64,000 nucleotides of DNA. Source: Rhynchonema sp. JSB1_4 (lineage: Eukaryota > Nematoda > Chromadorea > Monhysterida > Xyalidae). Positions 24,834 to 62,570 of this stretch are shown in pieces; the first letter of the stretch is position 1, and each line of letters starts with the position of its first letter. The position numbers and the translations under genes are program-made. The stretch is from the NCBI GenBank assembly GCA_030248065.1, contig JASAMV010003808.1, positions 1-64,000 on the forward strand. The letters run 5' to 3'. The notes under the pieces are model-generated. The model saw only the letters and a list, made by a program, of their open reading frames with translations, made no database searches and had not been told where the DNA came from.

Positions 24834-27800
24834 TTACTTTTCTGTCCTGTCCATCAGCCGAACAAGTATGCCGACTCCCGAATGTCTATTCATAGCACAA
24901 ACGAACTCGAATTTCGCGTTATTGTTCGCAAGTCCAAGTTCGATCATCATTTGTTGTTCCTGTTCGTCGAGATGGGCCATTCCCATTGGTTGTTGGCCAT
25001 GTTTTCGTTCCTTTGCCTTTTTTTCCATCGGTTCACTCTTTTCGCCACTTTCGACAGATGGCGATTTCGGAATGTGGTCGCGGGGAGATCGGTACGATTT
25101 CGACACTTGTTCGTTTTCGATCTGATGATTGAATCACCTACTTTTTCATGTTTTTTGACTGACTGTTTTATTGATTTGACGAATGATAATGGATTTGTTC
25201 TTTGAGTAGTTAATAAATTGACCATTGATTGTTTGATGTAACGACAGCTTCGCTTTGATTGATTGTTTTGAAGTTTCTCGGCTATTCAAAATTGATTGAT
25301 TGGCCCTCCCGCAGGCTTACCGTTTCTCTCGGTTCATATTGATCAAACTCTTGTTGTACTGTTGGGTGGACAGGTGGCACTGGCTAAAAAATACAATGGT
25401 GTTCGCTACATTCCCTTTCTTTCATAACACATAAACTGAACTGACCGGGGTTGATCGACTGCTTGATGCACCATCATTTTTGCCTGATCTCGTCGATCGG
25501 ATCGATTCAGCGACGAGGCGCACAGCGTCTTGCTGGAACATGATGTTCATTTTTTTAAATGTTTTTAGGTATACCAGACCCAAACACACCAATTTTTCCC
25601 GTTCCTTTCGTCGTTTCCTTTTCGCAATCAACTTTATCACTTTCACGCCGATCACCGTTGTGGCTGCGAGCAACAGCAACGTTAAAGCGGCCGTCACCGA
25701 GATCAGTACGATGAGCGCAGTGGTGGAACTCGTGCTCTCCGCTGTGTCGGGGACTGAGAGGGGGTTTATAGGTCAAGAAAAGAATGCCTGGAACATGCGG
25801 AGACAAAACGTGGCACCAATAAGAAGCGTTGAAACGCCCACTTTTCTCGCATTTGCTCAATTCATCGATCCACGCGCCATTTTCACACGTTGTCGACGCA
25901 GTGTCGCCTGTGCATGTGCACACAAACAAAAGCAAAACGTTTGACTAAAGTATCGGGGTGAGCACCAAACGATCGAACCGTTTAGACGATGGTCTTGGTC
26001 GCACGTTACAGACACAATAGTTGATTCGGCATATCGATGCTGCGTCGTTGGCTTGTCCCATTTCACTGGTTCGTGACTGTAGTTGTAGTTGGTGGCATCA
26101 GTCTTGGAGAATTCAATGCAGGCTGCAACAGATAGACACCAGCTGGAACCACAAGACACTGACAGTGGAACTTCCGTAGTTCATTCTATATACAGTACCA
26201 GCTGCAACTCTGGGTGAATTCTGCACGTACGCATACAGCACGCGTACGTACGCGTGCACGCCTGTGACGCCTTTGGACAGAATGCACACACAAAAGTCTA
26301 GGAGGCCGAGTACACCGTGTGCACTGCGTACACAGTGTTGAAGCGGTCAAAGGCGTGCCCGCGGTGTACGCGTACGTACGCAGGCGTACGCGTGCACTGC
26401 GCGTGCACCGCTGGGCGGCTTGTTTTTGCGCAACTGCACATTATTGGTTTATTTTGCTCTCTCACAATTATCAATGATTTGTCTTTGTTCACAATGCCGA
26501 AACGAAATAAACCGGCGATTTCTGTGCGAAAAGTCAAGCAACAAGTCCGACAGCTGCAAATCCTGAACCGCGAACGTGGTGGTCGTAAAGTTTCACATTT
26601 TGTGCGAGAGACCATCCAAGAAATGCGCAACATGGGCTACAGCAACATTGTGAACAAAGACAAATCACTGATAATTGTGAGAGAGCAAAATAAACCAATA
26701 ATATCCAGTTGCGCAAAAACAAGCCACCCAGCGGTGCACGCGTACGCCTGCGTGCGTACGCGTACACCGCAGGCACGCCTTTGACCGCTTCAACACTGTG
26801 TACGCAGTGCACGCGGTGTACTCGGCCTGAACCAGAAGAACCAGAACCCGAAGAAATGTCGCACCGACGAGCACGTCTGTGAATCGAACAAGTAGAATCG
26901 AACAGAAATGTGACTATGCTTCACAAGGCGCGTTTCTGTTCGACTCTCACATTGTCCCACAGTCAACCATTTTCTGAGAATACTGAACAAACTTGGTTTG
27001 CACGTGGCTTCAGTCTCATTCCATCCTTGTTCAGTGCACTCGACTTCAAGTGGATGTGGCGAAGTCGCATCGGTACTTTGAGGAGCCAAGCACTTGAAGA
27101 ATGCTTTGGCACCGATTGGGTACATTTCGTTGGCGAGTTTGGGTGGTGCAATTGAGGTCATCGTCGTGTTGTCAGGGTGCGGTATGGATGACGGACAAGC
27201 TGAAACCAAATGGAATTAACCAAAATCGTGGTCTTTTACCGTGGTATTCTAAATTTGATCTCACGCTTGGCACATCTGAGCTCGGTTGGATGGTTGTTGT
27301 CTGTGGGTATCCATTGATGGTCATCTTTGCATTCGACGGTCACCGATTCGCATGGGACTTCAGGACAGAGCGCTGCTGTTTGTTTGGTCCAGAACAGACC
27401 ATCTTGACAGGACAGCTTCACCTGGAAGTGGAGCAACTGTAAATTGGAATGAAAAGTTGCTACAATTAAAGTTCAAAATTCCGTGCCTGTGTGTTGATCG
27501 AGACAAGACTCTTGTCTCCCGCTGTTACTTGACGCGTTGACGGTTCATCAACCGAAACCTGATAACTTTTTTCTCTTGCTTTCAAAGCATTGTAGTTGCA
27601 AGCTGAATTGGGGAACAAACTTTCGGATGAGAAATAAGAAAATACTCAGCAAGGCTCGAACCTTTCTGACACGTCACCGAGGTCGACCATGTGCCGTCTG
27701 CCTTGCAACTGACCGACTGCTTGACCACGTAGTTCGAACTGATTTGGGCGAAAGACAGATCGTTGCACTCGATATCAAACGGCCTTGACCCAGGAAGAAT

Positions 27801-30800
27801 GTGGTGGGAGCCGATTTGCGATGCGGATGGATAGACGATCGGTTTGGCATTCAGATCAGTCTCGTGTAGCTTGAGGCACGCTTAAGAGGGGATGAAGTTT
27901 GTCCAGTGCGACAGGCTCCATACCGAATTGTGCGCACATAAAGAAAGATGTGCACTCAGCTTTGATGCATTGATCCGCACTTGACCAGGTGCCTTGGTCG
28001 CAAGTGAACTCCCTTGTCTTTTGACCGTCGGAATCCCAAACAAGAGAGTCTTGACATTCAACGCTCAACGTTGTCCCGTGGGTGTAGTGCGTGTCGCTGC
28101 CTTGAATCTTGCCTGGACCTGATGTCTTGCGGATAGAATGCTTCGACGTGTTCAGCTGTTCGCAACCTGCACAACGTTTGGTTAACAAAATGGAATTACA
28201 AAAGTTAAAGAAGTGCGAGTTGCAGATTCTGCTCATGTCCGGGAAGACCATCGCGGTTTTGTGGCTTGGATGAACCCACTCGCTGGTGTTTTCTAGACGC
28301 TACAGGTTTGGCATTGTCCGTTTCCGATGTTTCGTGAGTCTCAATATTAACCTTTGACGCATTTCATTCCTTCCGCCCATCTCAGCAGATGTCCTTTGCC
28401 CTCCACACACTTAACAGACTGCGTTGTGGCTGACAGCCCAGTGACGTGATGATTGGTCTCACATTTGACGGTTGATATTTTACCTCTTGCGAACTTTTTA
28501 TTTTGTTGATGGTCTTGAGTGGCTTGGTCAACCTTCAGTTCTTTGTCGAAGCAGTCTGGGTAAAAACACAATAACCTTTATGCGGGTGTGCTTCGAGGGT
28601 ACGGGGTGCCGCCAATGACGCGTGGTGGGGCTGCAGTTTCAATCCAAAACCGCGGCTGCCTGGTTCTCGTCAGTTCTAACAATCAAGTCCGTACACTGTT
28701 TGCAATTGTGGTACGTGAGGTTTCACTCAAAGTTTTTAGGTATAGTTTGGTGCTGAGACCAGTGATGTACATAGTTGGTCCGAGCACGAAAGCTAGCTAG
28801 CTGGAGGGGTCCGGTGCAAGAAAGCTAGCTAGCAAACCGCGGGTACCCCGGGTGTTGGTCCAGAAGTAAAAACAGGGGTATGAAAATTGGTCGAAATTAT
28901 GCCAAAATAAGCCTTAAGACACTTTGCCAGAGAAAATCGAACGGTGTTCATACAACATGGGTCAAATTTTATCGAAATCGAGTTTTCGCCATGAAACAAT
29001 TACGTAGGTCGGGGGTATTACGTACACAAAATATTTTTTGAATACTCCCTGTATAAGTCGAGATACGGCTCAAACAAGGAATTTTGGATCTGAGCTCAGA
29101 AATAACCAAGGAAAAATTTTTTTAAATTGTCATAACTCGTTCAATAAGTGGAATTTCGGGAAGCTGTTTTCACACAATTATAGATAAATGTCTCAGTATA
29201 GTGCATGTTAATAACTGTCTCCCTGCTACGCACAGGGTGGCCCAGAAAAAAAATTCAATTTTTTTCAAAAAAATCGATTTTGAGGTCAACTTCAGACCTT
29301 GTCGAAAACTGGCCGCTGTCGCTTCCGGCTAATCCATGGGTACTCGCGAGTTGCGCAAGCGATTCTGTCACTAAAACAGCAAAAAAATCCGTTTTCATTA
29401 ACACAATTTTGCGCAGCGCCACGTTGAAAACACCCCCCAGCACTGATATCGCACCCTCTGCATGCGCCAGGCAGCCAGCCTGTGACCGTGTGTGCGTGTT
29501 TTATTAACACGCTGGCTGGCTTGCGCATGTGTTGGATTCTTGTTGAACAGCTGTTAATGTGTGATTGCGATTAAAAATATGTTGAAAAGTGATTTTATTG
29601 CACATTTGCGGCAGGTTTTAATTCATTTGTATTGCATTACCTTTTGCTTTGTTTCTGCACGCGTGAAAAACGGAGTGTTGAGCTGTATGTACCGGTATGT
29701 ATGCCAACCTATTCATACTGCAGTGTACAGTTCATGTTCTGCCACTTTCGCGGTTTGAAAAAAATTTATGCTATTCTTCTGCTGGTTGGGATGGAAAATG
29801 TATTTACGCGCCAACATGAATAAAAACTTTTTCCGATAGCTCATAGCGCAACGTACGTGTAGGTATGTACAGTATACGCATTACAACAAATTTTTTCAAA
29901 GGTCAGAACGACGGCTTTCAATGTATCGAGAAATTGGTTATTTGCTTGAGAATCCGTGATGTGCTTTGGTTTGTCAGCCAAATTCATCCAATTCAATCCA
30001 CCAGCCAGCATCACATGGCACTTAGGCCATATAGTGACCACATAAAAAGGTGCAGTCGCCGGTCTCGTTCTTGGTTTTCAGTTCGATCCTCTTTTTGATC
30101 GGAAACGGATTCTTATGTGACGCACGCACTTGAATAAGGCAGCGACATTCATTTTGTAAAATTGCGTATATGATCAGATTGAAAGGGCAATTCATGAGAT
30201 TCCAAGAACTGCGATCTACAGTGCCTTATTTTATTTACTTCCATTTTATTTATTTCCACTTTATCGTCAAATGTGACGAACTCATAAGTTCGCTGCTGAG
30301 ATCCCAACACATTCAGTCGTTCCAACGACTGAAGATGTGGCACTTGTTGTCGCCATCGACGGCGTACACGTGCGTCGACACAATCAGAAACGGTGCGTCT
30401 CTTTCTTGTTCGGCATCTCGGACCTCGTGTGTCTGATAATGGTGGATGCATCTGAAAAACAATCGATTCCTATATTAAAGGCACAGCCGTACTTTACAGT
30501 CTTAGACCATACGGTATCTCCCTGAATTCTTACACACCTGAAATGTTTCAGGTTACTGTAGCCACGTCTCGCGCGGTTTTCGAGCGAAGCCGATAAACAA
30601 CACACCCAAACGCGGGCCTGACCAAACGCGCGCTAAATGTTTCGTGCTCTTGGCACTTTCACAAACAAACCACGCGCGACATGGCTACAAATTTTTTTAT
30701 TTGCACGGAACACGGAAATAATTCCGTGAACATTATTGCTGTTCGCGTCAACACACAAACTTTTGACTTGAGCACGCTGGCTTTTGTCATCATCACTCGA

Positions 30801-33800
30801 AAAGCACCGTTTGCATGCCTGTGTTATTACCGTGTTCCGTGCCACGGAAATATTTCCGTGTTCCGTGATTTTGAAAATTTTTCACGGAACACAAAACACG
30901 GAAATATTTCCGTGTTCCACCTAAGTCCGCCCTAGGACTGCAAAGTATGGTTGGTTTGCCCATATGTTTATCTAGGTATGCATACGATGTGATGCATATT
31001 GGTATGATATCTAAAGAGAGACAGTATACTACGAGAATGCTTGCACGGTAACTCGGGAGTTGTAAGAAACGACTTCCGTTCGCGTGCTGGACTGGGTGCA
31101 TGAACTGAAAGCACAAATTAACGTGCACGCGCATGCGCACGCAACTTCCTATTGCAAAACGCAGGCAGCGCACGTGCAAAACGTGAAGTTACGAACTTCG
31201 ATCTTTTGCCCATTCTTTGCACTATACAGTTGCTTTCGCACGCGTATGCACGATACTTTCAGCCTAGCTTTGCACATGGTACCGTAGCTTTCACACACAG
31301 GTGCGTGCCTATAGATAGGTCAGTAAAATTTGCGGTATGCTAACATGTGTGATAATGCAGTTATCCCCCGTGCTTTTCATGGCAAGCTTTCTGAATATGA
31401 CAACACCAATTTAGCAAACTATAGTGCGGAAATGGGAAATCGAAATTCGAACAACAATATTCCTCTTGCCTGAATAGATGATTTCGACATTTGAACAGGT
31501 CCTGCAATTGGACCTGTCGTCATTCATCATTTGGCCGCACGAGTTGGAGCGCTGAGGTCAACCGTTGAGAGCCGAATCCTGGCGTGCTGTGGAATAGTTG
31601 GCCCGTCAAATACACGTGTATCGTGCTCATGTTCCAATTTATCAAAACTGAATATCCTCGACATGCATTCAATTCAAATGCAAAAATGTCGCAGTGCTCA
31701 CTCTCTCACTCGCGCACTCAGTTCCTATTTTAGCAGTATAAATAATTACAATAGCACACGTAAATACCCGAACATTACCCTCAATTTCTCTTTCATTAGT
31801 ACGTGGAGGAAGGGAACAAACCAGCCAGCAGCAACACAAAGTGTCATGAGCTGACGGATGGACTATACATACGTGCAGCTCAACACTCCGTTTTTCACGC
31901 GTGCAGAAACAAAGCAAAAGGTAATGCAAAACAAATGAATCAAAACCTGCCGCAAATGTGCAATAAAATCACTTTTCAACATATTTTTAATCGCAATCAC
32001 ACATTAACAGCTGTTCAACAAGAATCCAACACATGCGCAAGCCAGCCAGCGTGTTAATAAAACACGCACACACGGTCACAGGCTGGCTGCCTGGCGCATG
32101 CAGAGGGTGCGATATCAGTGCTGGGGGGTGTTTTCAACGTGGCGCTGCGCAAAATTGTGTTAATGAAAACGGATTTTTTTGCTGTTTTAGTGACAGAATC
32201 GCTTGCGCAACTCGCGAGTACCCATGGATTAGCCGGGAGCGACAGCGGCCAGTTTTCGACAAGGTCTGAAGTTGACCTCAAAATCGATTTTTTTGAAAAA
32301 ATTGAATTTTTTTCTGGGCCACCCTGTGCGTAGCAGGGAGACAGTTATTAACATGCACTATACTGAGACATTTATCTATAATTGTGTGAAAACAACTTCC
32401 CGAAATTCCACTTATTGAACGAGTTATGACAATTTAAAAAAATTTTCCTTGGTTATTTCTGAGCTCAGAACCAAAATTCCTTGTTTGAGCCGTATCTCGA
32501 CTTATACAGGGAGTTTTCAAAAAATATTTTGCATGCCACTTATTTTCGATGTATGTAAACGTTTTTTGGCATAAACTCCAAAACCGCCAAATTTGGCCTT
32601 TTTCGTTCGATTTTCTCTGGCAAAAAGTCTTAAAATGCATATTTTTGTGCATGTGAGAGAACGTTTCAGCGAATTTGACCATTTTGGCCCATAAAATGGT
32701 CATTTTGACACTAAAATCAACACTTTTTTGACTTGATGACGGGAGCAAAAAAGCTAGCTAGCCAGTTTGGGGGTATATGTTCGGGAGCAAGAAAGCTACC
32801 TAGCAGTTGGGGTATTACCCCATACCTCCCAACTACATACATCACTGGCTGAGACTGTACCATCATGTATTTGGGGCTGGATCTGGACTGTCCGTCTCAC
32901 TGACGAGACCCAGTATTAGACTTTGGGTCGAACCGCCGCAGCCCCAGCACGTATCGTATGCACCCGTGCCCTCAAAGCACTACGTTTACCACCTTTGTCA
33001 GGTTTATGGGTGCCTTCGAAGGTACTCAACATTTAAATCAATAGGCTAATATTATATAGTGGCCAAATCACTTCGTGAACTCACAGTAGCCCAGAGTGAA
33101 CGCGAGAATTAATATATGCAATTCGGGGTAAGTTGACGAAGTGATTTGACTTGATCACTTGAGTTGACCACTGTAATATGAGCCACGCCACGTGGAAACC
33201 AACAACATTTGGCTTCGTCCTCACAGTCAACACAGAGTTCTTCATCCAAGCATGTTTGACCGCAGATTCCATTCGTTACGTCGCGACATTGTTTGCACAC
33301 TCGGTTATTGATCTCTGTTTTCAGTGTGCATGGTTCGTTCCGATTGTACACGACTGAGTAGGGCTGACAGACTGAGCAAGATAAACTCGTTTCAACAATG
33401 CATTACGTGATCATTCTGTTGCCGAAAAACAAAAAAATGTGCTTGCATTGACAGCTTAGGGCGAACTTGTGGTTAAATCCGGAATCCGGAAACCGGAAAT
33501 AGTTGCATACAAAAATACAAAACATTTTCGGACTCCGGAAATATTTCCGGAAAACGCAGAAATTTACATGCAAAAATAATGCGTTTTCCGCAAATATTTC
33601 CGGATTCCGGTTTCCGGATTCAACCTAAGTCCGCCCTTAGAAAGGAATCTTACACGTCTTGAAGCGGTAGATGCGGCAAAGGTCAATAACTCTGCGATCG
33701 TCTGTTGACTGTTGGGTGGCAGTCAGCTGGCATTCACCGGTTTGATCTTCGGGAACACGTAGGTCCATTGAAGTGGAATTAAAAACAATAGAGCAACAGT

Positions 33801-34142
33801 CTGTAGCAGATGAACGTGATTGCAGCGTGGCAGTGACGCAGGCACGCTGGCATTCGGCGAAGCTTGCTGTGTGAACTTGGGTCAACGGAGATAGTTCCGA
33901 GCCACACTTGAATCCTAATCTTTCAATTTGATCGGCAAGTGCTCCTGACAGACGGTCAATTTTAATTAATATGGTACAGTTTTAATTTTGATTAATAATT
34001 TTAATGTAACAATTTTAATTAATATGTTCCCGATGCTCATATTTGCACGCTCACCGGTGGTACTGACCAAGATCACCAACACAATTGCAGCTGCATAACG
34101 ACCATCATACACGATGACAATTTCCGGCTGTTTTTTAACCAT
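24834..34142 (-). CDS. receptor A: PAN + Cys-rich + 6 CCP/sushi domains + TM
   Basis: Fifteen exons in phase give 822 residues: 34142-34055, 33944-33654, 33371-33204, 28555-28352, 28166-27960, 27880-27662, 27602-27487, 27421-27265, 27199-26993, 26122-25979, 25907-25842, 25753-25590, 25532-25446, 25383-25321 and 25121-24834. Order: signal peptide (1-29), PAN-like domain with ATDCCSIVFNSTS (30-126), Cys-rich domain (127-182), six CCP modules (183-622, each bounded by phase-1 introns, with the C..C..C..W..C sushi pattern), a TM helix (TALIVLISVTAALTLLLLAA) with stop-transfer KRKRRKERE, and a tail of about 145 residues. It is a type I cell-surface receptor; its ligand is unknown. The donor after the exon ending at 27960 reads CTGAGT instead of GT, while receptor B has GTAGGT there. 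Retaining this 79-nt intron shifts frame and truncates the ectodomain. A 4.1-kb hAT element sits in intron 3. Confidence 0.82.
26303..26828. mobile_element. 526-bp long-inverted-repeat element in receptor A intron
   Basis: The ends AGGCCGAGTACACCG and CGGTGTACTCGGCCT are reverse complements, and inverted pairing continues through GTGAACAAAGACAAATC-type sequence to within about 100 bp of the centre. The centre holds a short open frame starting MPKRNKPAISVRKVKQQ, which I do not recognise. The homologous intron in receptor B (37793-38067) lacks it, so it inserted after the A/B duplication. Adjoining 26180-26300 is also absent from B. Confidence 0.85.
26915..27560. repeat. block nearly identical to 37990-38635
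   Basis: Exons and introns of receptor A here match receptor B at an offset of 11075 bp with almost no differences. The block covers CCP5 and most of CCP4. Flanking exons of the same two genes differ clearly, which points to recent gene conversion or unequal exchange limited to this block. Confidence 0.88.
30476..30960. mobile_element. nested MITE remnants inside the hAT element
   Basis: The left part (30478-30600) and the right end (30940-30960, GGTTGGTTTGCCC) match the GGCAAACCAGCC family seen complete at 35476-35728. Between them, 30690-30940 holds sequence of the CGGAAATATTTCCG family, ending in CACCTAAGTCCGCCCT. This looks like three insertion layers. Confidence 0.65.
31098..31285. mobile_element. 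diverged copy of the GTGCACGCG hairpin element
   Basis: This contains AACTTCCTATTGCAAAACGC and TACTTTCAGCCTAGCTTTGCA, which align with parts of the clearer inverted-repeat element at 36390-36602. It lies inside the 4.1-kb hAT element. Confidence 0.55.
33458..33637. mobile_element. AGGGCG.. CGGAAATATTTCCG hairpin MITE, copy in receptor A intron 2
   Basis: The 180-bp element starts AGGGCGAACTTGTGG and ends CAACCTAAGTCCGCCCT. Its body is built of CCGGAAATATTTCCGG-like palindromes. Flanking TTA on both sides suggests a TA-type target. It ends 16 bp short of the splice donor of the exon ending at 33654. It is related to 39864-40194. Confidence 0.75.
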
Positions 34143-34254
34143 CTCGAATCATATAAAAGCAAAAGTTACAGTGAAAATAAAGGAATTTTAAACAGTTTTT
34201 GGCTTTAGTTTCAAAGACTTTTCAACACATTCGGTGTATTGCATACCTAGCTTT
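34143..34254. promoter_or_regulatory. shared head-to-head promoter, pair A/L1
   Basis: Only 112 bp separate the start codon of receptor A (minus) from that of L1 (plus). The interval is A/T-rich and includes ATATAAAAG near 34152. Both genes must be driven from here unless one has an upstream non-coding exon. The same layout recurs in pairs B/L2 and C/L3. Confidence 0.6.
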
Positions 34255-35100
34255 ATGACCGCCCTACTCCTGTTGTTCTTTATTTTGGTCGCCATTATCA
34301 CCGGATTGAATGCTATTGAATGTTTCCACTCTGGCGGTGTTGAATCGGAATGTGGTCACTGCGTTATGGTTAGAGTAGACAAATGGGTTGGGCGCAAATA
34401 TGTAACTCACAAATGTAAATTTTCCTACATAATAATTTCAGAATTTTTATTTCGAGCCCAAGTCGAACAGCATATTCGACTCTACGTTCCATTGCGTAGG
34501 GAAAAGTTCGAGCAGTTGCAAAGAGGGTTGTGACAAAGATTCACCTGAAACAACCGCTCACGGCCACATTTGCTCCTGCTGCACGGACAGTTGCAATACT
34601 GAACAGACTTGTCGGCAGCTCTGCGTTCACAAGCTAACGGGTCTGTTTGCCTGAGAAACTCGCTGTAGGATCTCAATCTTAACGAAAATAGTTTATGCCC
34701 ATTAGCTTATCCAAAGTGTCGTAAATTCTCCTGTCTTGTACTAATTTTCAGATATTACGTACTCAAGAAACGGTACGAGCCCTGAAACCATGCTAGAAAA
34801 GTTAGCAAAATTTTTCAATATGTGATTAATTCGACAGAGCAAAGGACCGCAAATGGATACCGTCGACGTGTAATCCCCTGGCTTATAAAAAGTAAAAAAA
34901 AACTACGTCAGAAGCCCCATCGTCGTGTACTTCGTGATCGGTGGAGTGGTCGTTGCCGTGCTTCTGGGCTCTGCCATTCTGATCGCCTTGCTGGTCATAA
35001 CGTCGTGAGTTACGCTTCGATTTGCAAGATAAATTTATGTTGGCAACAAAAACCGTGTATTTACACTGTTTATTTATGTACTTTCAGACGAAAAGAATGA
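34255..35100 (+). CDS. L1: Ly6/CD59-like single-pass membrane protein
   Basis: Four exons join in phase to 140 residues: 34255-34368, 34442-34644, 34912-35004 and 35088-35100. A signal peptide (LLLLFFILVAIITGLNA) precedes a Ly6/uPAR-type domain with paired cysteines and the signature CSCCTDSCN near its end. Next comes a C-terminal TM helix (VVYFVIGGVVVAVLLGSAI) and the short tail SRKE. Ly6 proteins are extracellular three-finger folds; most are GPI-anchored, this one appears to have a TM anchor. Exon 2 could also end at a GTCTGT donor, but only the GTTTGC donor at 34645 keeps the TM exon in frame, and this leaves a shorter juxtamembrane stretch than in L2. The last coding exon is 13 nt in all family members here. 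Confidence 0.8.
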
Positions 35101-35219
35101 AAATCCACCACAATGGTGTTTCTTGTAAAAAAAGAACGATCTCGAAAACCGACGATTTTTAATCATGCAGACGACATGATCGGAAACTTCAAGAATATCC
35201 ATAAATTATATCTACCAAA

Positions 35220-36110: not shown

Positions 36111-36389
36111 TGATGAAACGCTGGCGTCTCAACGAGCGGTATTGTAAAACTCAAGAACAGGTGACACCCGATAGTGTTAGATGGAAAGGGCAAGAGGACT
36201 TCGTTCGGATCATTCCCAGAATTCTCAGCAAAGCAAAATGTCATAGTTTTTTAAAAAAAATCTTTATCCACGTTCATGAAAAGTTTCACCTTGCTCCAAG
36301 AAACGAAAAATGTTGCATGGTTTACAAAATACAATACCTTCTGTAAAGGTTTCCACAGGTTTAGCGTAAATTTTGACAAAAACACAGTT

Positions 36390-36602: not shown

Positions 36603-36721
36603 TACTGTATGCTCTCGTTCTTGGAATACGGTTAATTCTGTTACTTTTCAGCCAATAAAACAAATAGTCGCACTTCCAGAATAGAAAGAAATATGGTGTA
36701 CAAGGATCTTTCATATTTTCT

Positions 36722-44026: not shown

Positions 44027-44178
44027 GACGCAAGCTAACTCATTTTCGGTTCTTCACACTGCACCATCCTGTATTGGAGTTAAAAAATTAATGCTTGGAG
44101 TTTTGAGTTTACTTTAACCTTAACATTCCAAATTCCAATTTATAAATGTCGAACCATTTTTGACGCACTGTGGTCAAC
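44027..44178. promoter_or_regulatory. shared head-to-head promoter, pair B/L2
   Basis: A 152-bp A/T-rich interval separates the start codons of receptor B and L2. It is nearly the same length as in pair C/L3, which suggests a conserved bidirectional promoter. Confidence 0.6.
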
Positions 44179-46454: not shown

Positions 46455-47505
<1,051 letters not shown>

Positions 47506-50015: not shown

Positions 50016-50039
50016 AAAAAAATTTGTTTGAGTTCCATT

Positions 50040-51214: not shown

Positions 51215-54200
51215 TCAAGCTTCATACATGTATTCACTTCTTGGCATCTGAGTCTCTTTCTGCAGACCTTTTGACTTGTCCGTTTTGGTCACACTATGTT
51301 GCGACTTTGCGTCACTTTCGGTGGGCTCACGATGGCTCTTCTCAGTTGGTGTCGTTACTTTCGGTTTGTCTTCTTTCTTTTCCGTTTGATGTCGTTTGCT
51401 TCGGCGATAGATCCAGTAGCCGAATGCGATTAACGCGAGCAGAAGCAACAGCGACAGCACAAGGATGAGCACGATAGATAAGGTGTTGAATGGGCTGGGA
51501 TGCACTGGAAACAAAACATTGATCGCAATGACATTCAATTTCGTCAGTTTTCCACAGACAAGGTGTCAGTAAGAGTTTTCAGAATTTCGCCACGGGCAAA
51601 TTTGGCCTTGGACGTTCACACAACATTTTTATCCGAAATCGGAGCGTAGATGATTTGCCAGTCAGACGATGTCAATCAGTAGCATATCCACTGACAGGTA
51701 AAAGTGACTGACATGCACAAGTGACTGTTAAAAACATTTGTTCCCCAAATACCAACTGGGTACGCAATCGGGCACGTTGTAGTACCATTCGTTGCCCCTG
51801 CATTCCACCACCGGGTCGTGTGACATCTGTGCAGCCCAACGGTAGTCGGCCGCACATTGCAATGCTGCCCTGGTGCCCGTCTTGTACAACTCGGTGTGCT
51901 GGATTGGTTCGGGCGTCGGCGGCTTTAGCTCGGTTGCACACGGCAATTTGATTGGCGCCGCACAAACTGAAATCGGGTAATTGATTGAATAGCTAATTGA
52001 TTAATTGGTTTGTTAAATGACTCATTGGTTTATTGATTGCCAGTTGATTGGATAATACCGTTTGACTGAATGAATGATCGAACGAATAATGAGCAGTGAA
52101 GTGGTTCAACGTTTCCTACATTCCGTGCATTTCGATTTTGTTTGTGGAGTCCACTTGTTGTCGTGTTCGCATTCGGTGGTGATTGTCTTGCAGTCCAAAC
52201 CAGTCGGGCACAATTTCTCATCGTCCCAGTACAGACCCTTTGCACATGACAGTTTCACCTGAAAAGCTGCTGTGGATGTTTCCAGTAAATTGAGGTGGGC
52301 CTCGCTGTCTTTGCCTGAAATCCTTTCGGCACCAGCAATTTGTCATTGTCGGTCACCGCGTGTTTGGCATCGAGCGAGATGTTAACCCGATTTTTCGTCT
52401 TCTCCTCCTTCATAGCGCCCAAATCGCAAGCTGAAGTGGACACTCATTGAGATTGAGAGGATAGAAATATGCATAAAACTCACACGAAAGACCCTGGTAT
52501 TCAGGCACCTGGAGTGCATTTGAACTTGCGCCAATCGGCGTCCCAGATACCGTTTTTGCAGGCAACTGGGGTGTTTGGCAACGCAACCGCTCCTGCGTTG
52601 ATGTGACCCTGTTTGCACTGAAGCATCACCGAATCCCCTGATTGACGCAGTAGTGGATGCTTGGACACGTGACCCCTGACTCCGAGCGTGTAGCTGAACA
52701 GCAGGTGGTTGCTGGACAGCTCAGCTGCGTCAATTGCGTCGCAACCTGAAATTTTGCTCGAAAATTATTCCGAAAAGGATAGTATCAGGATATTTCAAAT
52801 CAGTGCATGGCAAAGCATGCCAATCTTTGACTGGTTGCTCACTAGACACCACCTACCCATCACGCATTGCTTTGGTGCTGTCCATTCGAGTTCGTCCATT
52901 GCATCTTGTCGACGGCACCAGATGGCTTGTTTGGTGCTGGCTGTGCCCTTGACGTGGTGTCCTTCATTGCATTCAATCTGCAACAGAATGTGGAATTGAT
53001 CATCCTTTGTCACTCTGTTACTGCCAGATTAACTTGTTTCAATCATTGATTGATTGCCTGGATAATAACGTATTGCTATTGGATTACCCACTTCGATAAA
53101 ATCGCCATAACCGTGTTCGTGCTCAACAATGTCAGCAGCCAGTTCCTTGAAATTTTCAATCTTGACACTTGTCGGCGATGGACAGACTGAAATGTAAAGT
53201 CACAAAAAACTTTGGAAGGCACATTATTATTGTTTTCTTAACAAAACAATCTAACTTTGCACACATTCGGGCACAAAATAGTGCCATCCGTTGACGGTAC
53301 ATTCCATCACTGCTGGATGGGGTATCATCGCTGCCCATTTGTGCTTGGCTTCACATTTGATGTTGATCTTGGTGCCGATCGAGTACAAGTGGTTGGTGTC
53401 ATTCAGCGTTTTCGGTTCGGGTGGGACAATCTCGGTTTTTGGTGGCAGTTGTGGAGAGTCGCAGACTGGAAAGTCAGGGTGCCTTCACGTTCTGAATGTC
53501 ATCTACAAACGTTATGCATACACCACGCAATCAATGGGCATGATAACAAACATAGATTATTGATCGTTTCAGCAGCGGTTTCTCCCTCTGATAAAATGAC
53601 CAATTGAATAGATAAATACACAATGAGTTTTACGTTCGACACATTTCCATTCGGTCGGATCGTTCGAGTCCTTCCTGACCCATTCACGATTTTGATTGCA
53701 TTCGACGGTGACCGAGTCGCATTGATCGCGATTAGGTGGACACAAGCGTGCGAATTTGTCGGTCCAGAACAGACCGGATGGACAGGACAGAATCACCTGC
53801 AAGATTATTGCTTCAAAAAACGTATTGTGTGAAACATCGTCGTGCATTTAAACCTGTGTATCAACCGTCACCAATTGCAGGCCATTCACGGTCACGGCTG
53901 GCTTCGATGGCGCACCGTTAACGACACGATTCGTGTGAAGTTGGTGAATTAAAGCGCCGAAATCGCAGGCTGAAGAAATTTATTCCTCTTTTTCAAAAAT
54001 GATGCCTTTCAACTGTACTTGTAACCAACATTGTTCGCACTCAGTCACATTTATCTGCCAGTCTCCTTTGTTAGTGCATTCCATGGTTTGACAATCGCGT
54101 GAAACATCAGCCGGCCAGATGTAGGGCAGCACGCACTCAACGGTGACCTTGGTGCCAATCGAGTACAGCTCGGAGGTGCCAGATACTGGACAAGTCGCGG

Positions 54201-57200
54201 ATTGGATAGCCGTATTCGAGGGAAGCCATTGGTTCGGTGAAGAACAGACTGAAATTACACATGTTTCAAAAGCTACATTTCAGTCTTAGTGCAAAGCAAC
54301 TTGTTTCTCACGCTCAGAGCATTTTAACTGCGAGGCAGCTTGTCCGTCCCTGGGTGTCCATTGATGGTGCAGGTCGCAAGCGATCGCCACCGAACTGCAG
54401 TTGACTTGTTCGGCGGGACACAACTTGGCGGTGTCGGACGTCCAAAACAGACCAGGCAGACATGACAGCGCGATCTGCAGTCGAGAATGTAGGCACAGTT
54501 TTTGCGCACACAACCATAAAATTCGTCAAGGAAATTGCATCACCTCAGTTCCTGAGGGCACAAGCTGCTTGCCATCTGCCGACACGGGATCAATCGACGG
54601 GGCACCAACTGTAACGCGGTCGTTCTTTGTGGTTTCGTGCAGAGCGACGACATCGCAGGCTTGAAAATGATGAGTTTTTTTACAAATGTTTGTTGAATGA
54701 GAATAACTCTGAATGTCCGCTCACCAGGTTCGCATTTGTAGTTCTCCGGCGTGAGCAAGCCTGCCCAATTACCATTTCTGCACGGCAAAGGTGCATCCGC
54801 CCAGGCACTGCCCTTGGCGCGAATATGACCCTGTTGGCATTGAAATTCGATCGTGTCGTCGGCCCGGCGTAGATTCGGCAGCGATTGAATCACACCCTGG
54901 CTGCCTAGAGTGTAGCTGATCAACACGTTGTTGTAAGCGAATGCTTGCTCGTTTTGGATGTTGGGGCAACCTGAAATACCTGTGCTATCAATAATGGCGC
55001 AAGCGAATGCGCCCATTTACACATTTCACATGGAATGGAATCGGTCCCGAGACAGTGACTTATAAAACCATAGGGCAACATTCCACGAATTCTTCAGGAC
55101 CCAAACTGCTAGTTTCATCAAGATTACGAATGCGAGAGTTATTTTAGGTACAAACTCCAGACTTACATCTGAAGGGCCCGCATTTCCGGGCCCAAACTTC
55201 TCGGACAGACCAAGGGGGACTGAACTACCTCTCACCTAGTAATTGGTAACTCCAAGATGTATATAATGGGAACTCGCCTTGTACACAGTTTTTCGCATTT
55301 TGCCACTTTGGTTCAAGGCCCACCAATTCACATTTGATTGTTTGCTTGAAGTTGGATTCGCCTTCGATGTGATAGGACACGCTGATACACGACAATTCGG
55401 TGTGGCTGGATTGTGGGAACATCATCTCCGGTTGTTTCACGTTTGTGATTGTATCAATTGGAAGAACGCAGGCTGAACAGGAAGGTGAAAAGCTCGCACC
55501 TTATCTGATTTCGGCACTTTGGCAACATCCTTTAAGCAGTCTTCGTATCAGCAAAAAAGTTGTTCATTGAATATTTTGCTGGTGGTTGGAATTGGTATGC
55601 TCTTATAAAAATCTCGTTTTCTCCAGAAATTCACGCGATTCGCCAAATGATGCGAGAGGTTAAAAAACACGAATTCCAAGTTCCACACGCTTCTCTGCAG
55701 CCCACCTTTCTCACACGAGAAAGTATCTGGTTTTGGCGACCATTTTGGCTCCGTGTGACCAGCGATGCAGCGGATGAACTTGGGCTCGCAACCACCTGCT
55801 TTGCAATCATTCTGGTCGGACCACATAAATTTGCTGTCGGCATCGGAAATACATGTGACCGAAATCTGTGGCGAAAAATGAAAACCAGATTATGATTTGT
55901 TCTTTTCTACCTCTAGAATGTCAGACATTTACCTTTTTGTCATCACTGACGTCAAAATAGTCATCAAGGATCAGTTCTGGTTGGACAGCCTTGACATTGT
56001 TGCCGAAGCCACGATTCAACTCATCGAAACTGCAGACTGGAAATGTTAAGATGTTTCATAAATTTTATTGAACTCAGAATTTTCAAAAAGATCAACCTTT
56101 CTTGCACGCCTTCCGGTCTTCCCATTGGCCAGTTTCCTGACACTTGATGGTCTGTATCTTTGCCTGCAGATCGGGGACATACGATTTATTCTGACAAGTC
56201 AGGGTCAGGATGGTATCCGTGTAGTAGAGAGGGTGATCGGTGGCGTATTGTGCTGGAGGCTCGCTTTCAACAATAGTGATTAATAGATTTTTGTCAGGCT
56301 CGGTTGCTGGGCTGTACTTTGAGCATGCTGCAAAAAACCTGTTTTCAATAAGAGTGATGAACAAGAAACTTTTTTTTGTTCAACCTTTTTTGCACAGAGC
56401 GGCATCAATTGTCAAAGTCGTTCCCTCAACCGGCTTCCAAGCCCCGCCTTCACATTTGAACGACACTTCTTTGCTCGTGATATCCTTCATCTGCCAGATG
56501 TAGTTCTGTTGAATCTTGCAGCTGAGCTGAGCTGCTGAATTGGCGATATGGTACGACTGTGACTTGCTCTGAAATTAGCTAAGTATAACTTCTTGTTGCT
56601 AGTAAGTTTGATCAGCCGAATTTCACCAACCGTGAAGTCGCTGTTGTCACTGTATTTGACATATCTGCCCTCCTTGTCAGATGCGTCTGGGCAGCCTGCA
56701 CACAATGCAAAGTGACTGAACAGTTTCGTCTGGAGATGACATCATTCTTTTCGGGCTCGCCCAGATAGACCCGAAACCCGAAATGCAATTTTTTCTATGT
56801 CCATGTTTTGGGTTTCGGGTTTTTGAAAAAAAAACCCCGAAACCCGAAACACAAAGCATGGTAGTCGAAAATGTTTCGGTTTTGCTACTTATAGCTGACG
56901 CAAATATTAATACAGTCAGCCAAAACATTTTCGAACATCATGCTTCGTGTTTCGGGTTCCGGTTTTTTTTGAAAAACTCGAAACCCGAAGCACGGACATA
57001 GAAAAATTCGTATTTCGGGTTTCGGGTCTATCTGGCTGAGCCCTTCTAAAATGCCTGTCTTGTTTAACCTGGTACACATTCCGGTGCATCTTTCCATTGC
57101 ACATCCTGCCCAGCGCCCTGGCGATTGCACTCAACGTCCATCGATGCTTTGGAGGTGGCCTTGAAGTGATACCCTTCTTTGCAGGCAATCTTGTGTATGC

Positions 57201-60200
57201 CGACGGGGTAGGATGGCTTGCCAATGGGATCAACGTTTTGGATGTTGGTAGCAAGGCAAACTGTTTTTGGTTGTTCAGGTTTTTGTAAATATCAGAGAAC
57301 GTGAAATGACACCACAGACTTACAGCATTTTTCAGTTGCGCAGGCAGCACACACCGGCGCGCAGTCGAAATCGCAAACGGACTCGGTGCGGCACTGCTGA
57401 CAGAGACTGCCATTGGAGACACAGTTTAGGTTCGGATTGTGGTTCAAGGTGCACCCTGGAGGAAAGACAGCCTGCGTACATTTTGCGTTTTGCATAATTG
57501 TTTCTCAACCAACCATTCATCGTTATCAGTCCGAATTCTACGCATCCTATAGTTGAGGCGACTCCTCTGTCAGACTGTTCGTGGTTGTTGAGTTTGCATG
57601 TGCTCGTCTCTGTCCAATATGAGATGGAACAGCAATCAGCGGATCGATTGTACGAGTTCTCAGTTTGTGCGATGCAGCGTTCGGCACAGTCTTCTTCTGA
57701 TATATTTTCAATTGCATTTTCGGTTGCATCTGGGGCAGTACACCCCTTACGATGAACGAAACCGACATGCATATCGTAGATCGCAACTGGAAGAAGTATG
57801 GGCAATCCATCGGCTCATGGCACTTTTTATACACACAGCGCATGCAGCAGCACACGCCATTTTCTAAACAAATTGTACACTTTGAGCAAGTGTCATACTT
57901 TGATGACCGCTTTTTAATTTATCCGGTTTTCATTTGCTGCTTGACATAATACTTTTCTGCCCTCTTGTAAAATTTGGGGATGTTTCAACTGATAACTGCA
58001 GAGAATAGATGCATTCATTGACGCCAGTAATGTAGCATGCAGCCTGTGTTTGCGAGTGCCATGAGCTGGCGGATTGCCTATACAATGAATTGTTCCAAAA
58101 GGTATGAGATAAGCTTTATTTCGCTTAGTTCATCGAATGTAATATATTTTTGAGTGGAATCGTGAAACTTGTTGATGTTTTGGGATGATCTAGTTCTGAA
58201 CTAGATGGGACCCGTGCCTACGGCCCGGCTACAGCGCCTCGCCCGTGCCGTGCCATAAACACATACACATACACACATACGTCTTCCTGTTTTAGTACTA
58301 TAGGTATAGATGTGTACATAACCCCAACAAGTAAGCTCCCAGTGCGCAGGGTTTTTTGGCCTGCCGCGGTTTGCGCTTGACTGAGGCCAAACCGCCAACC
58401 CGCCATCGGATTGTTGTGTTCAGCACACAAGGTATGCTGTTAGCACAATCAAAAGTGCATAGAGCACACCTGGCAAAAAGTGATCGAAAATGCTTTTTAT
58501 TGGTATGGTTGGCCGCTATGGTGCGTACTTGCCAGTACAGTAGCCATCATAACACTACGCCATGTGCTGACTTGGTTCGGCCTGCTGGCTTTGGGCTTGG
58601 TATCAACACATGCATGTACGCGCCATTAAAAAGGGCTCGGGACATAACCGAAGGAAGAGCAGCAGGACATATTGTTATATGCCGTTTGGAAAGCATTCTG
58701 AGAGCAAGCATTCTGAGAGCCTATGTCACGTGACGGCCATATTTCTCGAGAACACAAGTTTGTCCCTAAATCTTGAGGTCGCGCTTTGCGATGCAGAAAT
58801 AAGAATGTAATGGAGAAATAGAGCATAGTCAAAAGTACCGTAAAGTAGGGTTCTTAAATTTTGAAACTCGTGGCTACCTACCTCTGTGACAGGCCTAACA
58901 GTCCATTAAATTGCTACTTAGCTAGTTACATTCATTGACAGAATTGTGACACATTATGGCCACCGATTGCGTTGCATTCGAAATAAAAAATTTTAGAGAA
59001 ACGACTGTGTTAACAACCTATCAAGGTCAGAAGACGCCAAGGTCTACAGATCTCTCGGGGCAGCCATGCTAACCTGAATAAGATATTCAGCTATAATTGC
59101 TTGCTGTTAATAGCTATTGAAAATGTGGTAGCACCAAACAATGTATCTCGGGGGTAGCTTTCGAACGATATGTGACAAGTCCCAATAAATTTTTACACTT
59201 GAGGGCAGAGGCCAAAAAATGCTTTTTTGATGATTCTGGAATGAATCGTCACGTCACCGAGTGCAATTTCCGAATTTTGACCGTTTCTTGTCCATAGTAT
59301 GAGATAGTATGGGCATGTCATATATCGCTCGATAGCCACTTTGAAGCTACCTCGTTTGATGCTATCAAGTGTGCAATAGTGTTTAACAGTAGCGACTTAT
59401 GGTCAATTATCTTATTCAGGCTGGCATGGCTGCAGCAGCCGGTCCATGGAGTTTGAAGTCTTGAAACTCTCTAGATTGTTGGACTGTGAGCTTGCCTGAC
59501 TTTCTCGTTTCCAATAGATGCAACACGAGGCCTATTTACATCATATTTCTGTAAATGAATGCAATTAGGCAGTTTAGGGGGAATTTTTGGGTGTTTATCG
59601 TCCTGTCACGCCGCTACCTAAGTGTTTCCAAATTTAAAAACCTTATTTTCTGATACTTGCAACAATGCTCCATTTTTCTATTGCATTTTCATTTCTACAA
59701 CACAAAGCGGGGCCTCAAAATTTACAGACAACTTGTGTTCTCGAAAAATGTGGTCGATTTTGTCTCGGTCGGCATAGCTCGGTGTAAACGTGAAACATTG
59801 CCTGTTATTAACGTGGAATGTTTCAAGTTTACACCGAGGTCTATCACACTGAGCTGTCGACCGAGCTTTCCACCGACCTTTACACCCAACTGACCATTAC
59901 ACCGTTTCGAAAATATCACCCTATGTCTAGATGCCACAAAACAACGATTATGGCACAAAATATACCCATGGTAGCAGGATTGTTTCAAAAAAGTGGTTAA
60001 TTAAAAAAATTTTAAAAAAATAATTTTTTTTGAAACTCAGATTTTGCTTCTTTTTAATAAAAAAAAGTTGCCCAAAATGGGCTGAAATGTCCAAAAATGG
60101 CCTTTTTCGAGGCAAAAAATTGGCACTTTTTTCTGTGGACGGGACAATTTTTCCAAAATCGCGCCTGCGGCGCCCTGTATTGTCCCCAAATCCGTACAGG

Positions 60201-61608
60201 GATGCGCGGGGCTGGTCTTTTAGAGTGATGTGGCACCGATAATGTACTACTGCATGCTGCTGCACATGTATATATGCAGGTATTATGGTGCAAAACCGGG
60301 CGCGCAAAGTCGATCTGACACGCAAGATTTGGGCTGTAATCGATATTTTGATGGTCGTATGTCAGATATTCGGCATTAGATGCATTAAAATACGTTGTAC
60401 AGCATGCTACAATATATTAGAGTAACATCGTTAGTGAACATCAACCTCACACTGGTCGGAGACCATAGAATCTGCACAATACTACCGGGTGTCACCGGCA
60501 CCGCACAAGTTGGGTCTCAGGCGAAAATTTTTCAATTTTTGAAAAATATGTTGTATCGATTTCATTTATCCTGAAACGTCGTTTGCAACACTTTTCTAAT
60601 AAAAAAATTTTCGTCAAAAAAATCAAAAATTTTTTTTTTTAAAAAAGCTCGTTAATAAAAATTTTTTTTTCAACCCTGCATGGTAGGGTCAGGTGATGTC
60701 AACGGTAGCAATTTTTATGCAAAAATAGCACTTTCAAGGCAAAGATAGAGAAATTCTCGAATTTTAAAATAATGAAAAGTTTTTATTAATTTTTGGAACG
60801 AATTTGTTTAAAAAAACTTTTTTGTAATAAAACAAATTTTATTGAAAAGCCACTGGTTTCATTGAAATTGGTTAAGGTCGCGATATATTCTCAAATCCAA
60901 TCAAATGTACGTACTTATCAGTTCGAGTGCAGCAATTTTTCACATCGAGAACCGAAATTTTTGTGATCCGGAATAAAAAAGGTACAATTAAAATGAAAAA
61001 GTAAACAAAAGTGCCGAAGAAAGTCAAATAAGTGCCCCCGAATAACTCCCTGGTGGGGCGGTTATTCCGAAGATTTTCAGATAAGCCTACATTTCAGCAA
61101 TGTTTCATCTATTCAGACACAGTGGGGGCTTACTTGGGAAAACTATTCTTTCTGAAATCTCAAATCCGATCTGTCCCAAATAAGCCCCTAGGGAACTTGT
61201 TTAGCATTCTCCCTTAGAAATGTCTAAAAACTAAAAAAGTTGAAAAAGTTCAAGTACAAATTTTTTAAATCCAACCGTAAAATGATACAGAATGGCTCCA
61301 TCATTCCTCAGATTCATCAACTTCTTCTAGTAACTATCTCAGTATTTTTTGCAGTCCGGTGGGCTGTGGCTAAGAGGCCAAAAACTCCTCAAAAAAAGCT
61401 AAAAGCACACTGGCACCCTACCAGCTGACTTGTTAGGGTTAAGTTACGCAGGTATAGTCGCGTACCCACACCTGGATACTCTGCGTTTTAGGAAAAATTC
61501 TTTTGAAGGTAGATTTTTTCAAGCAATTCAGGTTCGATATGGAATCTGCAAAAAAAATTGGTCACCTGCACATAAAGGCAGCATCAGAAAGAGGCAATGC
61601 AGTTCCAT
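51215..61608 (-). CDS. receptor C: PAN + Cys-rich + 14 CCP/sushi domains + TM
   Basis: Twenty-four exons close in phase to 1339 residues: 61608-61566, 57786-57514, 57455-57324, 57260-57069, 56695-56631, 56568-56385, 56327-56097, 56036-55933, 55865-55706, 55472-55278, 54970-54725, 54659-54544, 54474-54312, 54248-54030, 53969-53854, 53796-53634, 53465-53256, 53186-53092, 52977-52857, 52745-52509, 52430-52315, 52258-52120, 51966-51757 and 51504-51215. Signal peptide MELHCLFLMLPLCA, PAN-like domain (15-105), Cys-rich domain (106-149), then 14 CCP modules (150-1243). Modules 2, 4, 7, 9, 11 and 13 are split by a phase-0 intron; the others are single exons. A TM helix (LSIVLILVLSLLLLLALIAF) precedes a Lys/Ser/Thr-rich tail ending SEYMYEA. 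Two GC-AG introns and several GTTGGT donors occur. The signal exon lies 3.8 kb upstream across repeats; its phase and its distance to L3 support it. Confidence 0.88.
56753..57043. mobile_element. GGGCTCG..CCCGAAACCCGAAA inverted-repeat element
   Basis: The ends GGGCTCGCCCAGATAGACCC and, inverted, GGGCTCAGCCAGATAGACCC match over about 30 bp. The body has repeated TTTCGGGTTTCGGG words in both orientations. It lies in the receptor C intron between CCP1 and CCP2. Confidence 0.85.
57801..58078. mobile_element. MITE family GGCAATCC, copy 2
   Basis: This is the partner of 19881-20162, with the same ends and interior. It begins 14 bp upstream (minus sense) of the acceptor of receptor C exon 2, leaving only the pyrimidine tract CTTCTTCCAG. 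A branch point in the MITE itself, or very close to it, would be needed for splicing. Confidence 0.87.
58200..58260. repeat. GC-rich dispersed repeat end
   Basis: GGGACCCGTGCCTACGGCCC and CCCGTGCCGTGCC match the complement of 42510-42560. It sits in receptor C intron 1. Confidence 0.65.
58741..59750. mobile_element. 1-kb inverted-repeat element in receptor C intron 1
   Basis: The left arm (58741-58830, with CTCGAGAACACAAGTTTGTC) and the right arm (59660-59750, with GACAACTTGTGTTCTCGA) are inverted copies of about 85 bp. No coding capacity is seen between them. Confidence 0.7.
59762..59921. mobile_element. GGTGATATTTTCG hairpin MITE, partial copy
   Basis: This matches the central and right part of the complete copy at 63351-63576, including GTGAAACATTGCCTGTTATT and CCGTTTCGAAAATATCACCC. 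The left arm is missing. It abuts the 1-kb inverted-repeat element. Confidence 0.8.
59990..61565. other. A/T-rich part of receptor C intron 1
   Basis: Homopolymer-rich sequence with many short A and T runs. I recognise no exon or element until the signal-peptide exon of receptor C at 61566-61608. Confidence 0.5.
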
Positions 61609-61762
61609 GTCCAAAATTGATCCGATAGAGTGATGATTGATGAAATATCCAAATGATCAAGTTTCAATAATAATAAAATAAAACGACTATTTTTACAAAT
61701 CTGGCTAAACAAATCTTTCACGAAAATTTTTCTGTTTCTTCAAAACATTGACTAAAATCAGC
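61609..61762. promoter_or_regulatory. shared head-to-head promoter, pair C/L3
   Basis: 154 bp of A/T-rich sequence lie between the start codons of receptor C and L3. The part next to L3, with AATCTTTCACGAAAATTTTT, recurs before L4 (63785-63812), so it is a conserved upstream element of these Ly6 genes. Confidence 0.62.
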
Positions 61763-62570
61763 ATGCACCCGTCTGTTCTGCTGATCATAATTGCGCTGAA
61801 CTCAACATTTATTTGCAAGACAGCGAATTTGACATGCGCCGTAAAGAACTATCACGATGCTGAGATTGGGAATCAGACTGACTGCGCATGCTGCGAAGCG
61901 GTAAGCAAATCAATGATTCCAGAAGTCTTCAACAACGAACTCACTGTTCATACGTTTCAGGCATTTATGCCAGAGAATTCGGATTCACCATCGGAACTCA
62001 GCATTGTTCTGCAATGCATGAAGAACCATACTGACTGCGTACAGATTAACTCGTGTTTCGAGAGAACAAACGGGGGCGGACGATGCTTCTGTGATAACAA
62101 AGACCAATGTAACTCCCTGGAATACTGTCAACACAAATGCTACCCAGGTTTGGTGTCTGGGTCGAATTTTGGGAACCTGTTGTGCTTAGGACAAACCGCA
62201 AGTAGATTCAGACCAATATCTAACGGCAACTACCGGCCAATCTAAAATTACCTCCCAAGGTTATCAAGATTCTCAATGTAAAAGCGAGGCATGCATTCTT
62301 GCAAATTCTATCCCACTTCCAGTATCTTCGGTATCAACAAACAATGACTCTGCGACAAGGCCGACCGATAAGCCAACGACGCCCAAATCCGATACGATTG
62401 CGTACATCGTGATCGCAGGGGTGATTGTGTCGGTCGCTTTGGCCTCCGCCGTCGGCGTAACATTTCTAGTCATATTTCTGTGCGTGAGTTTTTTTAGAAA
62501 GTATTGGCCCAATATATAGTCAGTATCAGAGCGCACTAATGCTAGTTTATTTTTCAGAAAGAAGGATTAA
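61763..62570 (+). CDS. L3: Ly6/CD59-like single-pass membrane protein
   Basis: Exons 61763-61900, 61961-62147, 62323-62479 and 62558-62570 join in phase to 164 residues. Signal peptide (SVLLIIIALNSTFICKTA), Ly6-type domain with ten or more cysteines and the signature CFCDNKDQCNSLEYC, a Ser/Thr/Pro stalk, TM helix (IAYIVIAGVIVSVALASAV) and the tail LKKD. Exon number and the 13-nt last exon match L1 and L2, but sequence is more diverged. It is the partner of receptor C. Confidence 0.9.

What the first reader, a model, noticed from the sequence alone, without database searches (positions are those of the whole stretch)
24834..62570. Tandem head-to-head pairs of a PAN/sushi receptor and a Ly6/CD59-like protein
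Three times in 38 kb a large CCP receptor on the minus strand and a small Ly6-fold membrane protein on the plus strand start 112, 152 and 154 bp apart. Both partners keep their exon plan in every copy. Such strict pairing suggests co-expression and possibly a cell-surface complex. CCP and Ly6 folds are the two folds of vertebrate complement regulators (CD46/CD55 and CD59), and PAN/CCP proteins also appear in self-recognition and adhesion. A recognition or defence role is inference only. I know of no described two-gene system with this layout.
Basis: partly seen in the sequence, partly recalled or inferred. Interest (0 to 1): 0.95.

Follow-up and report, generated by a model that had tools for sequence, protein, structure and literature searches.

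The report
Head-to-head receptor and partner gene cassettes
In this invertebrate genome two unrelated cell-surface genes, a large receptor and a small cysteine-rich membrane protein, sit back to back with only 112-179 bases between them in four places on two contigs, an old paired cassette that suggests the two proteins are made and work together, though nobody has tested it.

Summary
The layout is real. New: a fourth pair on another contig, C1160, 179 bp apart, with proteins diverged to 22-29% (receptor front end) and 24-30% (small partner) identity. So the cassette is old and was kept, not a recent local accident. Receptors run signal - PAN-like - Cys-rich - CCPs (6, 6, 14, 4) - transmembrane - tail. 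The small partners share a Cys pattern and intron position. Corrections: PAN_1 scores only in copy C; Sushi in B, C and the C1160 copy; no test supports Ly6/CD59 homology. Exon number is not constant. A and B are saturated at silent sites in front but identical in CCP4b-CCP5, introns included: gene conversion. A fifth receptor is a mosaic. Best reading: an old, co-expressed receptor/partner cassette. Self-recognition is possible (Dictyostelium tgrB/tgrC has this layout); complement regulation has no support.

The parts
34143..34254 (.). 112-bp interval between the start codons of pair A (putative shared promoter)
   Evidence: 30% GC
44027..44178 (.). 152-bp interval between the start codons of pair B
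   Evidence: 36% GC
61609..61762 (.). 154-bp interval between the start codons of pair C
   Evidence: 27% GC
24834..34142 (-). receptor gene A: signal exon 34055-34142, PAN-like 33654-33944, Cys-rich 33204-33371 (end set by hand), six CCP-like modules within 25843-28555, TM exon 25590-25753, tail exons 25321-25379 and 24834-25121
   Evidence: TM hydropathy. The automatic model put spurious exons in the 33.2-28.6 kb intron and missed the TM; mended by hand
36722..44026 (-). receptor gene B: signal exon 43960-44026, PAN-like 43516-43818, Cys-rich 42674-42865, six CCP-like modules within 37524-39626, TM 37309-37439, tail to 36722
51215..61608 (-). receptor gene C: signal exon 61566-61608, PAN 57514-57786, Cys-rich 57324-57455, 14 CCP-like modules within 51753-57260, TM and tail 51215-51504
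   Evidence: Pfam Sushi E 1.3e-12, 5 stretches; PAN_1 22.7 bits, cut-off 21.4; signal exon
34255..35005 (+). small Cys-rich protein gene A: exons 34255-34368 and 34442-34640; TM stretch 34910-35005
   Evidence: TM
44179..44904 (+). small Cys-rich protein gene B: exons 44179-44313, 44407-44608, TM exon from 44792
   Evidence: TM
61763..62570 (+). small Cys-rich protein gene C: exons 61763-61900, 61961-62147, TM-bearing exon from 62212; 3' end uncertain
   Evidence: TM
26840..28561 (.). receptor A tract 86.9% identical to B 37917-39632, with 300 bp at 100% (26947-27246 and 38022-38321), introns included: gene conversion
34909..35011 (.). small-protein TM exon A, 89% identical to B 44808-44910 although the ectodomains are about 40% identical
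49366..50022 (-). relic of a receptor 3' end (B type, 80.7% DNA identity to 36722-37365)
63809..63871 (+). relic of a C-type small-protein first exon; no divergent receptor start beside it

Best explanation
Each pair is an old two-gene cassette. One short AT-rich interval between the start codons acts as a two-way promoter, so the same cells make both a type I receptor (PAN-like tip, Cys-rich module, CCP stalk, TM, tail) and a small Cys-rich membrane-anchored partner. The two most likely meet at the surface of the same cell as receptor and co-receptor or cis-partner for an extracellular ligand. Adjacent placement keeps the two matched N-terminal ectodomains together while unequal exchange and gene conversion reshape the outer parts (CCP number, TM and tail). 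Shown: layout, architecture, a diverged fourth pair on another contig, conversion and mosaics. Inferred: shared promoter, co-expression, physical complex, ligand.
For: Three pairs at the stated spacings against 0 of 150 simulations reaching three. Fourth pair on C1160: receptor ATG 30095 (-), small-protein ATG 30275 (+), 179 bp, with signal / PAN-like / Cys-rich / CCP / TM order and Sushi E 7.5e-11. PAN-Cys-rich identity to A-D 22-29%, small-protein identity to A-C 24-30%, so the pairing predates strong divergence. Silent sites between A and B are near saturation in PAN (dS 1.81), Cys-rich (2.27) and small-protein exon 2 (4.08). All 4 receptors whose 5' end could be read are head to head with a small-protein gene, and 4 of 5 such small-protein genes have a receptor. 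A single enhancer between two head-to-head genes can drive both in C. elegans (PMC12239621, passages).
Against: No expression or binding data. The three intervals share no clear motif. C1160 has a second small-protein gene (exon 1 at 31665, exon 2 at 32224-32445) with no receptor of its own. Fragments of single partners exist: 49366-50022, 63809-63871, and C3482 5200-5256. Receptor D on C3482 has no candidate first exon in its 790 bp upstream, so its partner is unknown. The C1160 small protein ends in a weak hydrophobic tail (best 19-residue mean 1.63), so a shared anchoring mode is not shown. Adjacency can persist by inertia.
Confidence: 0.5

Rival explanations
1. Duplication by descent only: two unrelated genes fell side by side once, and block copying carried the accident along. 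They may share a promoter but have no joint function.
For: The spacers 35.25-36.08 kb and 36.72-37.37 kb recur at 50.06-50.63 and 49.37-50.00 kb, so whole units were copied. The four pairs are not independent events. Single-partner relics and an unpaired small-protein gene exist.
Against: The pair survives at saturated silent divergence and on a second contig in a locus that otherwise shows insertions, relics and mosaics.
Confidence: 0.33
2. A self/non-self or gamete recognition locus: the two ectodomains are matched receptor and ligand acting between cells, linked so that matched alleles are inherited together, as in tgrB/tgrC.
For: Same layout as tgrB/tgrC: diverging membrane-protein genes, several pairs, fragments, recombination without strong selection. 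Here the N-terminal ectodomains of both partners are the most diverged parts, while the outer parts are converted or swapped.
Against: No polymorphism data. dN/dS is 0.13-0.25 in the PAN, Cys-rich and small-protein exon 2 of A vs B and 0.18-0.37 in C vs D: constraint, not diversifying selection, though saturation blunts the test.
Confidence: 0.1
3. Synaptic or receptor-clustering accessory proteins: a CCP scaffold and a small Cys-rich modulator of acetylcholine receptors, as for nematode LEV-9 and animal Ly6 modulators (recalled).
For: Domain classes only; a review of CCP proteins at synapses was seen in a search listing (PMC9083331).
Against: Ly6 homology is not supported; LEV-9 is secreted (recalled) while these receptors have TM segments.
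Confidence: 0.04
4. Complement regulators like CD46/CD55 and CD59.
For: CCP modules in one partner.
Against: No Ly6/CD59 match in any test; A, B and C small proteins have TM segments rather than CD59's lipid anchor (CD59 anchor recalled); PAN and Cys-rich tips are foreign to CD46/CD55 (recalled).
Confidence: 0.02

Closest known systems
Dictyostelium tgrB/tgrC allorecognition pairs (PMC12324515 passages; PMC5288501 passage)
   Same: Two different membrane-protein genes, diverging from one short shared promoter (523 bp for tgrB1/C1), several pairs per genome, partial copies and recombination around them, no strong selection signal.
   Different: Amoeba rather than animal. I ran no sequence comparison with TgrB/TgrC. 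Spacers here are 112-179 bp between start codons. No polymorphism or recognition data here.
[quoted passage not shown] elegans mtl-2/T08G5.1 and cdr-1/F35E8.10, PMC12239621 passages)
   Same: Two genes on opposite strands share one 5' region; one enhancer can drive both.
   Different: Those are single pairs of metal-response genes; here one pair type recurs and encodes two surface proteins.
Vertebrate complement regulators CD46/CD55 and CD59 (recalled)
   Same: CCP modules in one partner.
   Different: No Ly6 homology detected, TM anchor in three small partners, PAN and Cys-rich tips, head-to-head pairing.
Botryllus histocompatibility locus proteins, including sushi-type fester (recalled; PMC12065747 seen in listing)
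   Same: CCP-bearing surface receptors in a recognition locus.
   Different: No head-to-head small Cys-rich partner known to me; no sequence comparison run.

Membership tests
CCP/Sushi receptors | Pfam Sushi over cut-off, several modules, TM segment | tested here: met
   C 1.3e-12 with 5 stretches; B piece 1.1e-5 and C1160 copy 7.5e-11; A identical to B over CCP5, though whole A and whole B gave none; TM hydropathy 2.67-3.26 in A, B, C and the C1160 copy
PAN/Apple domain | Pfam PAN_1 over cut-off | tested here: inconclusive
Ly6/uPAR (three-finger) domain | sequence or fold match to the family | tested here: inconclusive
   No Pfam match, no PDB sequence match at E 10, hhalign probability 0.3 to CD59, over the 6 columns of the CN motif only; structure model mean pLDDT 38, and it included the putative intron. 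Fold not testable from it
Ly6/uPAR (three-finger) domain | terminal CCxxDxCN-like motif near the end of the domain | tested here: inconclusive
   A, B and C1160 have C.CCTD.CN, C has CFCDNKDQCN; all are followed by two more Cys (CN-x4-C-x3-C), which I do not recall in Ly6
Bidirectional gene pair | opposite strands, 5' ends under 1 kb apart | tested here: met
   112, 152, 154, 179 bp between start codons; transcription starts unknown
Bidirectional gene pair | co-expression from the shared interval | not testable with these tools
   no transcript data
tgrB/tgrC-type allorecognition locus | diverging pair of different membrane proteins with repeated copies and fragments | tested here: met
tgrB/tgrC-type allorecognition locus | high allelic polymorphism and matched heterophilic binding | not testable with these tools
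   one genome only, no binding data
Vertebrate complement regulators | CD59-type Ly6 partner with lipid anchor | tested here: inconclusive
   no CD59 similarity beyond a 6-column motif; A, B, C carry TM-like segments; the C1160 copy ends in a weak hydrophobic tail that could be a lipid-anchor signal

The most novel reading that the evidence does not exclude
An animal counterpart of tgrB/tgrC: a recognition system in which a PAN-CCP receptor and a small Cys-rich surface partner are inherited as one non-recombining cassette around a shared promoter, with matched ectodomains in the middle and exchangeable stalks, membrane segments and tails outside.
Probability: 0.12. Interest if true: 0.88.

Novelty: new variant of a known kind. 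Interest (0 to 1): 0.6.

Why it matters
If the pair is functional, genome layout alone names both partners of an unknown surface complex. Neither the receptors nor the small partners found a relative among about 5.8 billion proteins at that tool's sensitivity. The architecture also makes a general idea testable: head-to-head placement shields two matched ectodomains from recombination while the rest of both genes is reshuffled.

Tried and rejected
Dropped as artefacts: spurious exons of the automatic receptor A model inside the 33.2-28.6 kb intron and a 9-bp exon (61480-61472) in the C model. The C string scanned still held those 3 residues.

Pattern hits on C1053 and C5584: two of the five matches of the looser Cys pattern were read and judged by eye not to be such genes.

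Positive selection: no support. dN/dS is 0.13-0.37 where dS could be estimated; CCP4a (4 replacement, 0 silent) and CCP6 (3, 0) have no silent change, too few to judge.

Shared promoter motif: the 4-sequence alignment has 25 invariant columns of 295 and no clear block; the bacterial-type scan means nothing here.

Homologues: searches found none at E 10 (in one search only the 7971 candidates sharing most words were scored). UPAR_LY6 in the whole genome: one marginal match elsewhere with a stop inside, none in the window.

Other CCP genes: four fetched 10-kb loci (L047-L050) gave CCP hits but no PAN, Cys-rich or small-partner hit at E 0.05. Twenty further loci could not be fetched, so unpaired CCP receptors as a control were not surveyed. 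Weak Cys-rich/CCP hits on C895, C512, C3165, C915 and C4917 were not read. The Sushi list (102 matches, 150 of 304 candidates scored) did not include the window's own contig but did include C1160.

Literature: searches gave listings only; no paper on this pair was seen in them. Passages only were seen of PMC12324515, PMC5288501, PMC12239621.

Full report
Setting. The window is bases 1-64000 of contig C2328 (81185 bp) of a 204-Mb eukaryotic assembly in 5747 contigs. Its mitochondrial COX1 reads with Ser at AGR, Met at ATA and Lys at AAA, that is code 5; stretches such as HFLGLQG look nematode, perhaps enoplean, to me, but that is recall and no call tested it.

The observation. Sequence reading and a small exon-chaining script give three receptor genes on the - strand and three small genes on the + strand whose start codons face away from each other with 112, 152 and 154 bp between them. 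A scan with no use of domain identity, for a signal-like first exon with a phase-1 donor on one strand and one with a phase-0 donor on the other, returns these three loci only. In 150 Markov-simulated windows the mean is 0.27 and the highest count 2. The settings were fixed after seeing the pairs. Copy C's first exon is 3.8 kb from its second; that intron holds repeats found elsewhere on the contig (57796-58084 and 59975-60678).

Anatomy of the receptor. Signal exon; one PAN-like exon with a CC-containing core and a C-x-L; one Cys-rich exon ending in about KCC; CCP-like modules, some split by an intron; TM; tail. CCP-like modules by Cys count: A 6, B 6, C 14, C1160 copy 4 (first half of C's ninth module added). 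Sushi is over cut-off in C and in pieces of B and of the C1160 copy, PAN_1 in C only. Whole A and whole B gave no Pfam family. TM segments of A, B, C and C1160 have 19-residue hydropathy means of 2.67-3.26.

Anatomy of the small partner. Signal exon carrying the first three or four Cys, a phase-0 intron at the same place in A, B, C and the C1160 copy, then an exon ending in D-x-CN-[ST]-x3-C-x3-C. A, B and C then have a TM-like segment (2.64-3.14), the C1160 copy only a weak hydrophobic end (1.63). The last exons are uncertain. I call it Cys-rich rather than Ly6: Pfam, PDB sequences and hhalign to CD59 give no support, and the structure model was uninformative.

Beyond the window. Protein searches with A, B or C sequences found no other small gene. 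The pattern for C.CCTD.CN found A, B and one on contig C1160, with no match for the reversed control; a looser form added two more, judged unrelated. Around the C1160 match, a receptor starts at 30095 on the - strand and the small gene at 30275 on the + strand, 179 bp apart. The receptor has the full order of parts. Its PAN-Cys-rich part is 22-29% identical to A-D and its partner 24-30% to A-C. A second small gene follows on the same strand (exon 1 at 31665; exon 2 at 32224-32445, 40% identical) without a receptor. So 4 of 5 small genes with a readable 5' side, and 4 of 4 receptors with a readable 5' end, are paired. A fifth receptor, D, lies on C3482: its PAN-Cys-rich part is 58% identical to C and its TM and 3' end are 97% identical to B at DNA level. 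Its 5' end was not found in the 790 bp available, and a small-gene fragment resembling C lies beyond its 3' end.

History. A and B: PAN dS 1.81, dN 0.46; Cys-rich 2.27, 0.31; CCP1 0.57, 0.18; CCP2 0.56, 0.12; CCP3 0.09, 0.03; CCP4b and CCP5 no difference; small-gene exon 2 dS 4.08, dN 0.57; small-gene TM exon 0.32, 0.05. Introns in the CCP4-5 tract are identical too. CCP4a and CCP6 show 4 and 3 replacement but no silent changes. This is an old duplication with recent conversion of the membrane-proximal part, and constraint rather than diversifying selection in front. Unit spacers recur, and single-partner relics remain at 49366-50022 and 63809-63871. A and B have unlike TM exons while B, D and the relic share one: tails are exchanged.

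What it most likely does. The repeated, old pairing, the short spacer and two signal-bearing proteins point to one co-expressed surface cassette. I put 0.5 on a functional receptor/partner pair and 0.33 on mere co-inheritance, because copies are related by descent and a 10-kb block can stay together without selection. Self-recognition gets 0.1: tgrB/tgrC shows that exactly this layout can serve it, also without a strong selection signal, but no polymorphism data exist here. The complement reading gets 0.02.

Novelty. The layout is known from tgrB/tgrC; the protein pair is not known to me, and the searches listed no paper on it. Neither receptors B and the C1160 copy nor the small-protein profile found a relative, but that database search is word-based and its coverage of animals is unknown to me. 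I rate it a new variant of a known kind.

Noticed in passing
L047 (C1071:22000-31999), L049, L050: Tandem and inverted genes that by eye combine a C-type-lectin-like front (L047, L050), CCPs and an EGF-like part; not tested with Pfam.
   Followed up: no
L048 (C5228:15000-24999): A long run of CCP-like exons with a TM-like segment near 8.2 kb, weakly similar to receptor A CCP1-4; its 5' end was not fetched.
   Followed up: partly
L053 (C544) 6508-6690 and 5335-5529, and C4698:16976-17179: PAN-like stretches similar to receptor A's PAN with an in-frame stop, two on C544 and one on C4698; possible fragments of the family.
   Followed up: no
window 28904-29691 and 31870-32645: Inverted repeat, 92.5% identical arms, inside the large intron of receptor A; looks like a mobile element.
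   Followed up: no
window about 46930-47360: Long CA/TG microsatellite between small gene B and receptor C.
   Followed up: no
window 19876-20168, 57796-58084, contig 74312-74606: Three-copy dispersed repeat, one copy directly upstream of receptor C's PAN exon.
   Followed up: no
window 13159-14691 (+): Long Lys/Glu/Ser-rich open frame of 510 codons.
   Followed up: no
window about 3415-4873 (+): Open frames that by eye resemble 3-hydroxyisobutyrate dehydrogenase (recalled).
   Followed up: no
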